Positions 42,444 through 44,251 of a stretch of 44,251 nt of DNA are shown in pieces. The translations under genes and the position numbers were made by a program. Source of the stretch: Thermoflexibacter ruber (GTDB taxonomy: Bacteria; Bacteroidota; Bacteroidia; Cytophagales; Thermoflexibacteraceae); assembly GCF_900113045.1 (NCBI RefSeq), contig NZ_FONY01000002.1, positions 1 to 44,251 on the forward strand. Reading direction: 5' to 3'. The number at the start of each line of letters is the position of its first letter. Positions within the stretch are counted from its first letter, which is position 1. A model generated the notes under the pieces. It saw only the letters and a program-made list of their open reading frames with translations, did not search any database and was not told the origin of the DNA.

Positions 42444-43940
42444 ATGCAATTAAATACTATTACTTTGACAGTTAAACTTCAAATAAGACCCTTAGGGGAT
42501 AAAGAAGCCCAAAACGAAGTTTGGAGAAATCTGAGAAATATCAATAGAGATGTTTTCAAAGCCGCTAACCTTCTCATGTCCCACCTGCACTTTGTAGAAG
42601 CCTTTGAGCATCAATTTATGCAGACGGATAGAATTCTGGAAAAAGAAATGCTTGATAGGGAGAATAAAAAGAAAAATAAAAAACTCAATGCTCAGCAAAT
42701 AGAAACCATAGCACAAGAAATCGCAGAAATCAAACAAAAGCGCAAAGAACTTAAAATAGAAGTTGCAGAAAAAGTAAAAATCTTTTACAATGGAAAAAAT
42801 GAAAGTTTTGCATATAATTTTATACGCCATGAATACCCTCAAATCCCCTCTTATTCTGTAAGTATTCTTGTTAAGACAGTACAAAATAAGTTTAAAGAAG
42901 AATGGAAGGAGGTAAAAAAAGGAGAAAAATCCATTAGTAACTTTAAAAAGACGATACCTATTCCTATTGATGATAAACAAATCGCTAATACAGATAAGGG
43001 AAAGAAACTTTGTTACATAAAAAAAGAAGGAGAAAAGTTTGTTTGGGAGTTAAATTCTCTGGAAGCAAAGTTTGAAATTGTTACAGGAAAATACAAGCAG
43101 TCAAAATATATGGGAGAAGATAAAAATAAGCGCACTACTTTGGAAAGAGTGATGAATTTTGAATACAAAGTAGCAGACTCGTCCCTAAAGATAGAAGAAA
43201 ATAAAATCTTCTTGTTGCTCGTTTGTAAGATTCCCCAACAGCAAGCTACCAGCCTACCCAATGTTAGTATAGGAGTCGACTTAGGCATTCGTACTCCCGC
43301 TTGTATTGCCTGTAATGATGGACTACGAGTAATTTCACTTGGTTCAAAACAAGATTTTTTAGCCATAAGGCAAAGGTTTTACGAGCATAGGAAAAGACTA
43401 CAAAAAAGCCTTGCTATGACCAAAGGAGGAAAAGGAAGAGAAAAAAAACTCAAAGCCCTTGAAAAACTGAGAAAAGCAGAAAGAAATTGGGTAAGAACTT
43501 ATAATCATACTTTAAGCAAAAAAATTATTCATTTTGCCATCCAATGTAGAGCAAGTAGGATACAGATAGAATTGTTAGAAGGCTTTGGCAGGAACGAAAA
43601 TAAGGTAGATGAAAAAGGAAATTATTTATTGGGCAAATGGAGTTATTACGAGCTTCAAAATATGATAAAGCAAAAAGCAGAACAGTACAAACTTGTAGTT
43701 ACAACTATAGACCCTTATCATACCAGCAAGACCTGTCATGTGTGCGGAGAATTGGGGTATAGGAAGGGAGCAGACTTTTTCTGCCAAAATGAACGATGTA
43801 AAGAATATCAAAAAAGACAGAATGCCGACCACAATGCCGCTTTCAATATTGCTAAAAGTACGACTTTTGTTGCTAAAAAAGAGGATTGTACTTATTTCAA
43901 GTTGGAGCAAGAAAAAAAGAGTAAAAAAGAAGAAGAATAA
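42444..43940 (+). CDS. Cas12f/TnpB-type RNA-guided nuclease
   Basis: A 498-aa RuvC nuclease of the TnpB/Cas12f lineage. The N-terminal half (1-265) is helical and basic with a coiled-coil insert at about 60-110; SISNFKKTIPIPIDD (about 163-177) resembles the 'S-x-P-S-Y-K-R-x-I-P-L' segment of Cas12f1. The RuvC core shows Asp279 (SIGVDLGIRTPA), Glu376 (IQIELLEG) and Asp462 (NADHNAAFNIA), all intact. The zinc ribbon has Cys431, Cys434, Cys447 and Cys452. At 498 aa it is larger than typical TnpB (about 400) and in the Cas12f range. No TnpA transposase lies beside it. A structured RNA candidate follows immediately. Cas12f with an array beyond the window, or a domesticated TnpB, are both possible. 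Confidence 0.88.
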   Translation: MQLNTITLTVKLQIRPLGDKEAQNEVWRNLRNINRDVFKAANLLMSHLHFVEAFEHQFMQTDRILEKEMLDRENKKKNKKLNAQQIETIAQEIAEIKQKRKELKIEVAEKVKIFYNGKNESFAYNFIRHEYPQIPSYSVSILVKTVQNKFKEEWKEVKKGEKSISNFKKTIPIPIDDKQIANTDKGKKLCYIKKEGEKFVWELNSLEAKFEIVTGKYKQSKYMGEDKNKRTTLERVMNFEYKVADSSLKIEENKIFLLLVCKIPQQQATSLPNVSIGVDLGIRTPACIACNDGLRVISLGSKQDFLAIRQRFYEHRKRLQKSLAMTKGGKGREKKLKALEKLRKAERNWVRTYNHTLSKKIIHFAIQCRASRIQIELLEGFGRNENKVDEKGNYLLGKWSYYELQNMIKQKAEQYKLVVTTIDPYHTSKTCHVCGELGYRKGADFFCQNERCKEYQKRQNADHNAAFNIAKSTTFVAKKEDCTYFKLEQEKKSKKEEE

Positions 43941-43952
43941 TTAGAAAAATTG

Positions 43953-43960
43953 TATCTTTG
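43953..43960 (+). promoter_or_regulatory. -7 promoter element of the structured RNA
   Basis: TATCTTTG is an exact TANNTTTG match 12 bases after the nuclease stop codon. It would start transcription near 43967, at the first hairpin of the RNA. The -33 region lies in the last codons of the nuclease and has no TTTG. Confidence 0.45.
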
Positions 43961-43967
43961 TTCTAAC

Positions 43968-44148
43968 TACATCATAGATGTATTCTATCAGAAAGAGATA
44001 GACGCTTCGGGTGCTTGTGTAGGTCTTCCTCCTCATAAGAGGAAGTTTGTTGGCGAAACAACCCTAAGCCTATACCGATAAGGTAGCAGGCTCATCCGTA
44101 GGCGGGGAGAAAGCATTAGATTTATAATGCATATTCTACCTTTGCAAT
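43968..44148 (+). ncRNA. Structured RNA, probable tracrRNA/omega RNA of the nuclease
   Basis: The sequence is much richer in G+C than its surroundings and packed with helices: TACATC/GATGTA (43968-43982); TCTATC/GATAGA (43984-44002); a multibranch closed by GCTT and AGG (44013-44023) with CCTAAGC (44063-44069) that encloses CTTCCTC/GAGGAAG (44025-44045) and GTTG/CAAC (44049-44062); CCTaTACC/GGTAgcAGG (44069-44090); GCATTA/TAATGC (44113-44130); and a weaker ATATT/AATAT. The segment ending GGTAGCAGGCTCATCCG recalls the core of Cas12f tracrRNAs. Position directly 3' of the nuclease is that of a Cas12f tracrRNA or a TnpB omega RNA. Ends are estimated. Confidence 0.65.
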
Positions 44149-44163
44149 ATACTTTCAAATCTT

Positions 44164-44232
44164 TTTTTAACAAAAAAAATGCTCTTTGACATAACGCTTG
44201 AGGTCAAAATCCTTCAGTTTTTTTGTTAAAAA
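44164..44232. repeat. 15-bp perfect inverted repeat at the window edge
   Basis: TTTTTAACAAAAAAA (44164-44178) is the exact reverse complement of 44218-44232. Between the arms lies a second stem, TTTGAC/GTCAAA (44185-44190 with 44203-44208). It could be an anti-repeat and the first CRISPR repeat, a transposon-end hairpin, or an intrinsic terminator-like structure. Only 19 bases follow before the window ends, so these cannot be separated here. Confidence 0.6.
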
Positions 44233-44251
44233 CTATAAATAAGCTGCTGTT

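What the first reader, a model, noticed from the sequence alone, without database searches (positions are those of the whole stretch)
42444..44251. Compact Cas12f/TnpB nuclease with adjacent structured RNA, cut by the window edge
The protein has an intact RuvC triad and zinc ribbon, a Cas12f-like helical N-terminus and a size above typical TnpB. It has no TnpA partner, and a separately promoted, strongly folded RNA lies directly 3'. Known Cas12f loci place a tracrRNA and array here; TnpB loci place an omega RNA that ends at the transposon right end. A Cytophagales-like nuclease in between could be a Cas12f with a short array, a transitional tracr-using TnpB, or a domesticated RNA-guided protein. 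No Cas1/Cas2 is seen.
Basis: partly seen in the sequence, partly recalled or inferred. Interest (0 to 1): 0.82.

Follow-up and report, generated by a model that had tools for sequence, protein, structure and literature searches.

The report
Cas12f CRISPR locus in a Bacteroidota bacterium
This is a small CRISPR immune system of the known Cas12f kind, with its guide-RNA scaffold next to it and its spacer array apparently lost in a run of undetermined bases just past the window edge; it is an ordinary but rare member of its family.

Summary
The 498-aa protein at 42444-43940 is a Cas12f with an intact RuvC triad and zinc ribbon; its best solved relative is Al3Cas12f (phmmer 5e-64). The contig continues past 44251 into 1600 N; one base after them stands a 36-nt sequence that agrees at 30 of 36 positions with the CRISPR repeat of a same-genus genome, G002. 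There a 56%-identical Cas12f is followed by a non-coding scaffold and an array (20 full repeats on two contigs). A same-family genome, G003, has a third such locus with a different repeat. In G002 and G003 the scaffold pairs with its own repeat and not with the other's. The window's scaffold keeps two helices in all 33 pair cells across the three loci, but its own anti-repeat match (10 nt) is only suggestive. A tree places the protein with Cas12f, apart from the TnpBs sampled. So this is a type V-F CRISPR-Cas locus with a tracrRNA, a new member of a known kind; the transitional and domesticated readings are not supported. The array itself, targets, PAM, activity and spacer acquisition remain unseen or untested.

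The parts
42444..43940 (+). cas12f gene, 498 aa, with RuvC D279/E376/D462 and CxxC zinc ribbon 431-452
   Evidence: tree
43953..43960 (+). TATCTTTG, candidate -7 promoter box for the tracrRNA; a TAnnTTTG box lies just after the stop codon in 3 of 3 loci
   Evidence: 3.0-3.4% of shuffles each; consensus recalled
44008..44145 (+). tracrRNA scaffold core: helix 1 44008-44012 with 44094-44098; helix 2 44102-44107 with 44140-44145
   Evidence: 33 of 33 pair cells standard in three loci, two pairs changed on both sides; the helices were drawn by me from these sequences
44149..44173 (+). candidate anti-repeat; 44152-44161 is a perfect 10-nt complement of the repeat beyond the gap; end approximate
   Evidence: 17 of 2000 shuffled repeats reach it in this place; whole-duplex energy is not better than shuffles
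44164..44232 (+). inverted repeat with A-run and T-run between tracrRNA and array; leader or terminator, unresolved
   Evidence: A-run, TCTTTGA and T-run shared by the three loci in the alignment

Best explanation
The locus is a type V-F CRISPR-Cas system: cas12f, then a tracrRNA gene with its own promoter, then a leader and a CRISPR array hidden in the N-run. Most likely the array is transcribed and each repeat pairs with the tracrRNA anti-repeat to form a crRNA:tracrRNA guide. Two Cas12f subunits would bind it, recognise a PAM 5' of the target (T-rich by analogy with Al3Cas12f) and cut double-stranded phage or plasmid DNA with RuvC. Shown here: protein family, intact catalytic residues, order of parts, scaffold conservation, a repeat at the far side of the gap, arrays in relatives. 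Inferred from characterised Cas12f: dimer, PAM type, cleavage, immunity. The locus shows no adaptation genes, so new spacers would have to come from another system, such as the Cas9-linked Cas1/Cas2 on contig C120, or none are now acquired.
For: Match to Al3Cas12f over residues 27-480 (5e-64) and to two PADLOC profiles (Cas12f, Cas12u3) over residues 7-479 at about 290 bits, where 4 of 4 Bacteroidota TnpBs tested get 97-157 bits on the C-terminal part of the same profiles. RuvC triad. G002: 56% identical Cas12f plus scaffold plus array, 15 full repeats on C29 and 5 on C148, 18 complete spacers of 29-30 nt, all different. G003: Cas12f in two pieces plus three copies of another repeat, the last imperfect. 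The window genome's single 36-nt repeat copy begins one base past the N-run. Own-repeat pairing in G002 (-30.8 kcal/mol, 0 of 200 shuffled repeats as good) and G003 (-27.7, 1 of 200) but not with each other's repeats (-12.5 and -18.1). Two scaffold helices kept in 33 of 33 cells against 33-48.5% when slid. The scaffold pattern is found in 2 of 98 genomes, both Cas12f carriers (the backward control also matched twice, and G003, with a gap of 46, falls one base outside the range I set). Tree: window, G002 and G003 form one clade (100/99), and the 15 TnpB-like rows lie on one side of a branch (86/92).
Against: The window genome's array is not read: one repeat copy is seen, and I cannot tell whether the N-run is an assembly gap or a withheld stretch. 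The window's RNA region pairs with that repeat no better than with shuffled ones (-15.5, reached by 84% of 200), and no better than with the G002 and G003 repeats (-18.6, -19.0); only the placed 10-nt match is unusual (17 of 2000; 49 of 2000 over the whole 311 nt). With three sequences the column shuffles reach the observed covariation in 58 of 500, and I drew the helices from the same sequences. No protospacer was found. Branches inside the Cas12f part of the tree are poorly resolved, the Cas12f-labelled rows are not one clade apart from the dead relatives, and AsCas12f1 joins at 86/92 only.
Confidence: 0.92

Rival explanations
1. It is an ordinary IS605/IS607 TnpB with an omega RNA, and the repeat beyond the gap belongs to another CRISPR system.
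For: NCBIfam guided_TnpB is met (135 bits, cut-off 100), the NCBIfam Cas12f2 model is not (82 bits, cut-off 450), and TnpB and Cas12f share the C-terminal part.
Against: Full-length Cas12f match, tree, one match in the genome, no TnpA recognised nearby, and the order Cas12f-scaffold-array in two relatives, with the G002 repeat 30 of 36 identical.
Confidence: 0.03
2. It is a transitional system that uses both an omega-like RNA and a CRISPR array, in the manner of TranC.
For: The scaffold lies directly 3' of the gene, as in TnpB, and nuclease-dead relatives have a like scaffold there with no array seen.
Against: Scaffold and array are separate parts in G002 and G003, with a repeat-specific anti-repeat; LaTranC is not among the PDB matches at E up to 1.
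Confidence: 0.02
3. It is a degraded or inactive Cas12f locus, for example with a dead array.
For: No adaptation genes at the locus; the visible repeat fits the window's anti-repeat over 10 nt only; the G003 gene is interrupted in its assembly.
Against: The window ORF is open with all catalytic residues, and the scaffold helices are kept.
Confidence: 0.08

Closest known systems
Al3Cas12f (Alistipes sp., PDB 9NZO/9NZR; PMC13186708)
   Same: Best solved relative, aligned over residues 27-480; also from Bacteroidota (taxonomy recalled); nuclease gene with tracrRNA and array; large guide RNA
   Different: An insert before RuvC-III in Al3Cas12f is missing here; activity shown there, untested here
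497-aa Cas12f1 of PDB 8HR5 (SpCas12f1, name recalled) and RhCas12f1 (PDB 9NZP)
   Same: Type V-F effectors, same domain order, phmmer 1e-51 and 2e-49
   Different: Form a separate clade in the tree
Nuclease-deactivated Cas12f of PDB 9N9C and the ~365-aa relatives in Bacteroidota
   Same: Homologous protein, and in 7 of 8 loci a scaffold with the landmarks CTTGT, CCG and CTCACT after the gene
   Different: In 5 of 5 aligned the RuvC-II glutamate, RuvC-III and the zinc ribbon are gone, and in 4 of 5 the RuvC-I aspartate; the window protein is intact
IS605/IS607 TnpB
   Same: Shared RuvC and zinc-ribbon part
   Different: Here no transposase was recognised, one copy, a Cas12f-type N-terminal part, a tracrRNA scaffold and a CRISPR repeat

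Membership tests
Type V-F CRISPR-Cas (Cas12f) | Effector homologous to Cas12f over its full length | tested here: met
   NCBIfam's Cas12f2 model is not met (82 of 450 bits); that model is for one subgroup
Type V-F CRISPR-Cas (Cas12f) | Intact RuvC D-E-D and zinc ribbon | tested here: met
Type V-F CRISPR-Cas (Cas12f) | CRISPR array beside the gene | tested here: inconclusive
   One repeat beyond the N-run; arrays in relatives G002 and G003
Type V-F CRISPR-Cas (Cas12f) | tracrRNA whose anti-repeat pairs with the repeat | tested here: inconclusive
   Met in G002 and G003. In the window the scaffold is conserved, but the anti-repeat test with the one visible repeat is weak
Type V-F CRISPR-Cas (Cas12f) | Guide-dependent DNA cleavage by a dimer | not testable with these tools
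   Needs biochemistry
IS605/IS607 TnpB element | Protein groups with TnpBs | tested here: not met
   the 15 TnpB-like rows lie on the other side of a branch (86/92)
IS605/IS607 TnpB element | TnpA partner and multiple copies | tested here: not met
   One match in the genome; no TnpA-like gene recognised in the stretches inspected
IS605/IS607 TnpB element | Transposon ends | not tested
   Element ends were not searched systematically
TranC (LaTranC) | Close sequence relation to LaTranC | tested here: not met
   9jfo is not among the 19 PDB sequences at E up to 1
Nuclease-dead Cas12f (9N9C type) | Loss of RuvC residues and zinc ribbon | tested here: not met

The most novel reading that the evidence does not exclude
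These V-F loci of one Bacteroidota family and the nuclease-dead, sigma-factor-linked Cas12f proteins seem to share one guide scaffold (GGGT-CTTGT, CCG, GGTGAG...CTCACT), and 5 of 8 dead-protein loci carry TATACAAC after it, like the 3' ends of the G002 and G003 repeats (ACTACAAC, ACCACAAC). The single guide of the dead proteins could thus be a tracrRNA fused to one repeat-spacer unit of such a CRISPR locus, which would make this locus a living relative of the ancestral immune form.
Probability: 0.35. Interest if true: 0.45.

Novelty: new member of a known kind. Interest (0 to 1): 0.3.

Why it matters
It adds a small Cas12f clade with its tracrRNA scaffold and repeats. Cas12f proteins are sought as compact genome editors, and the closest characterised one, Al3Cas12f, is reported as highly active in human cells (PMC13186708, abstract and section 6). 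The clade is rare: 3 of 390 genomes of the order carry an intact-type relative, counting the G003 copy that is split in its assembly. Its scaffold resembles that of the nuclease-dead relatives, which makes a step from immunity to regulation open to test.

Tried and rejected
Rfam: no family at gathering score in the window, and only three hits below gathering score in the RNA region, E 0.1 to 0.78. Sigma-70 promoters: no excess. Close relatives by peptide patterns: none in genome contigs with the single protein, one with the alignment (JAAFJS010000124.1, taken to be G002's contig C29 because both are 17,665 bases long), none in viral contigs. By tblastn, 8 phage and 22 plasmid records match, 0 of them over 80% of the protein in one place, and none above 60% identity; nucleotide search of plasmids gave nothing. 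Protospacers: the G002 array stretch on C29 gave only four phage records at E 4; the first 20 nt of 6 of the G002 spacers gave one match among viral contigs, which agrees over 21 of 30 nt, then stops, and is taken as a GC-rich chance match. PADLOC Cas12f labels alone were rejected as proof because TnpBs also score with them; one PADLOC 'Cas12f' profile, PDLC01691, fits the 4 TnpBs better (159-177 bits) than the window protein (82). Synteny: the neighbour gene for a bifunctional nuclease (PF02577) is found in 1 of 3 relatives, G002, on another contig than its Cas12f and with no Cas12f within 1.5 kb, and G002's Cas12f has other neighbours, so the two loci are not at a shared site. Helix counts for the nuclease-dead loci were spoilt by patterns that matched off by one base or in the wrong place; one search counts plain landmarks instead. 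A first try at the sigma-factor test used wrong coordinates and was repeated with the right ones. A structure prediction was not run, as the sequence match to solved Cas12f was taken as sufficient.

Full report
What is there. The ORF 42444-43940 encodes a 498-aa protein of the RNA-guided nuclease family. NCBIfam calls it TnpB family in the broad sense (135 bits, cut-off 100) and does not pass it for the Cas12f2 subgroup (82 bits, cut-off 450). PADLOC gives about 290 bits to two profiles, Cas12f and Cas12u3, over residues 7-479. Those labels alone do not separate Cas12f from TnpB: 4 of 4 Bacteroidota TnpBs tested score 97-157 bits on the same two profiles, but only on their C-terminal part, and fit another 'Cas12f' profile, PDLC01691, better (159-177 bits) than the window protein does (82). 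The best solved relatives are Al3Cas12f (9NZO, 9NZR; 5e-64), a 497-aa Cas12f1 (8HR5) and RhCas12f1 (9NZP). The identity of 9NZO, 9NZR and 9NZP was read in PMC13186708 (outline with abstract, sections 6 and 8, passages by search). RuvC residues D279, E376 and D462 and four zinc-ribbon cysteines are present.

Tree. In a 30-row maximum-likelihood tree the window protein, G002 and the C-terminal piece of G003 form one clade (100/99). They lie with Al3Cas12f, 8HR5, RhCas12f1, a dead homologue of G063 and seven ~365-aa relatives (91/90, an open fork). AsCas12f1 joins them at 86/92, and all 15 TnpB-like rows lie on the other side of that branch. The order inside the Cas12f part is not resolved, and the Cas12f-labelled rows do not form one clade apart from the dead relatives.

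Beyond the edge. Two features that belong to the system lie outside the window, in contig C55 coordinates, which equal window coordinates: a run of 1600 N at 44252-45851 where the array should lie, and, one base after its end, a 36-nt sequence at 45853-45888 on the + strand, presumably the last repeat. The contig is 246,709 bases long. A 27-base pattern from the repeat finds no other copy in the genome within three mismatches. The 36 nt agree at 30 positions with the repeat of G002. I cannot say whether the N-run is an assembly gap or a withheld stretch. The Cas13b-like gene of this genome also stands beside a long N-run, and its Cas9, Cas1 and Cas2 genes stand at a contig start, which fits arrays that were not assembled.

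Relatives. G002 (same genus; probably record JAAFJS010000124.1, a Cytophagales metagenome bin) has a 56%-identical Cas12f, then about 285 nt without a called gene, then the array: 15 full repeats to the contig end and 5 more on contig C148, followed there by an imperfect one. The 18 complete spacers are 29 or 30 nt long and all different. G003 (same family) has a Cas12f that is split by a 23-bp duplication and a 10-N gap in its assembly, followed by three copies of a different 36-nt repeat, the last imperfect. An intact-type relative is found in 3 of 390 genomes of the order (own, G002, G003); the two other matches at E up to 1e-20, G063 and G632, lack catalytic residues. In a phylum sample 19 of 395 genomes matched and only the own one over the full length. 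Seven of the other 18 hold the ~365-aa relatives, which end before the zinc ribbon (four of them in the alignment); nine hold TnpB-like ORFs; two (G154, G393) were not examined.

Guide RNA. In G002 and G003 the non-coding stretch holds an anti-repeat that pairs with the locus's own repeat (-30.8 kcal/mol, reached by 0 of 200 shuffled repeats; -27.7, reached by 1 of 200) and not with the other's (-12.5 and -18.1, within the shuffles). The two repeats differ much, so this is pairing kept through change. For the window, the only repeat in view gives -15.5, no better than shuffles (84% reach it) and no better than the foreign repeats (-18.6 and -19.0). At the homologous place, right after a conserved CAAT, the window has a perfect 10-nt complement (44152-44161), reached by 17 of 2000 shuffled repeats there, or 49 of 2000 over the whole 311 nt. 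The visible repeat is probably the last of the array and may have drifted; this is inference. Two helices of the scaffold (44008-44012 with 44094-44098; 44102-44107 with 44140-44145) form standard pairs in 33 of 33 cells in the three loci, against 33 to 48.5% when slid, with two pairs changed on both sides; column shuffles reach this in 58 of 500, as three sequences hold little power, and I drew the helices from the same sequences. The scaffold pattern occurs in 2 of 98 genomes, G000 and G002; the backward control also matched twice, and G003 falls one base outside the gap I allowed. A TAnnTTTG box lies just after the stop codon in all three; the motif is in excess in the window as a whole (115 against a mean of 63), as expected of Bacteroidota (consensus recalled).

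How it works. By analogy with the Cas12f orthologues of PMC13186708, two subunits would bind one crRNA:tracrRNA guide, read a PAM (T-rich for Al3Cas12f and its kin there) and cut the target. None of this is tested here. No targets of the G002 spacers were found. No adaptation genes were seen at the locus. The genome has one Cas1, beside Cas9 and Cas2 on contig C120; no Cas1 was found in G002 or G003 (7 of 13 genomes searched had one; G003 is 89% complete), so how spacers are gained is open.

Known or new. PMC10606334 (outline with abstract, section 3.3, tables, passages by search) counts 14 Cas14-like proteins from Bacteroidetes, one of them as putatively functional; none of the repeats in its Table 1 equals these. 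A paper search for Cas12f with Cytophagales gave none, in a library that lacks most subscription papers and all preprints. The locus is a new member of type V-F. The likeness to the scaffolds of the nuclease-dead Cas12f relatives is the one point of wider interest: 7 of 8 such loci have CTTGT and CTCACT after the gene, 6 of 8 GGTGAG, 5 of 8 TATACAAC, and the gene upstream is a sigma-70 family protein over Pfam's cut-off in 2 of 3 tested, weak in the third. The published account of such regulators is recalled only; one search gave one paper, unrelated by its title, and the 20 listed of 954 papers of the other had no occurrence of dCas12f.

Mended: the dead relatives' lost residues (one of five aligned keeps the RuvC-I aspartate), the unexamined phylum matches, the window's pairing with foreign repeats, and landmark counts. 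The confidence of the best explanation went from 0.93 to 0.92 because the window's own scaffold pairs with its one visible repeat no better than with foreign ones.

Noticed in passing
G000 contig C120:89-4971 (L072): Cas9 (1120 aa), Cas1 and Cas2 genes at the start of a contig, probably type II-C (inferred); no array was found in the first 15 kb of the contig.
   Followed up: partly
G000 contig C52, L007:2-1420 minus strand: Cas13b-like gene (473 aa in view, 268 bits) next to a long N-run; a third CRISPR type in the same genome.
   Followed up: partly
L042:5847-7139 minus strand (G063): Cas12f homologue of 430 aa that has lost the RuvC-I aspartate and the zinc ribbon; downstream are two imperfect 24-nt direct repeats 64 nt apart, perhaps a relic array. 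No sigma-factor-like gene was recognised by eye among the neighbouring ORFs listed.
   Followed up: partly
L110 (G632) and L077-L082, L085: Eight ~365-aa nuclease-dead Cas12f relatives, 7 of 8 followed by a guide-like scaffold; the gene upstream is a sigma-70 family protein in 2 of 3 tested (L110, L077).
   Followed up: partly
L041:754-2216 minus strand (G003): Cas12f gene split by a 23-bp tandem duplication and a 10-N gap, by mutation or assembly error.
   Followed up: no
L074:9871-13900 (G001): Long array with 66-nt period (53 copies reported) in a same-genus genome, close to a Cas1 gene on the same contig; CRISPR type not determined.
   Followed up: no
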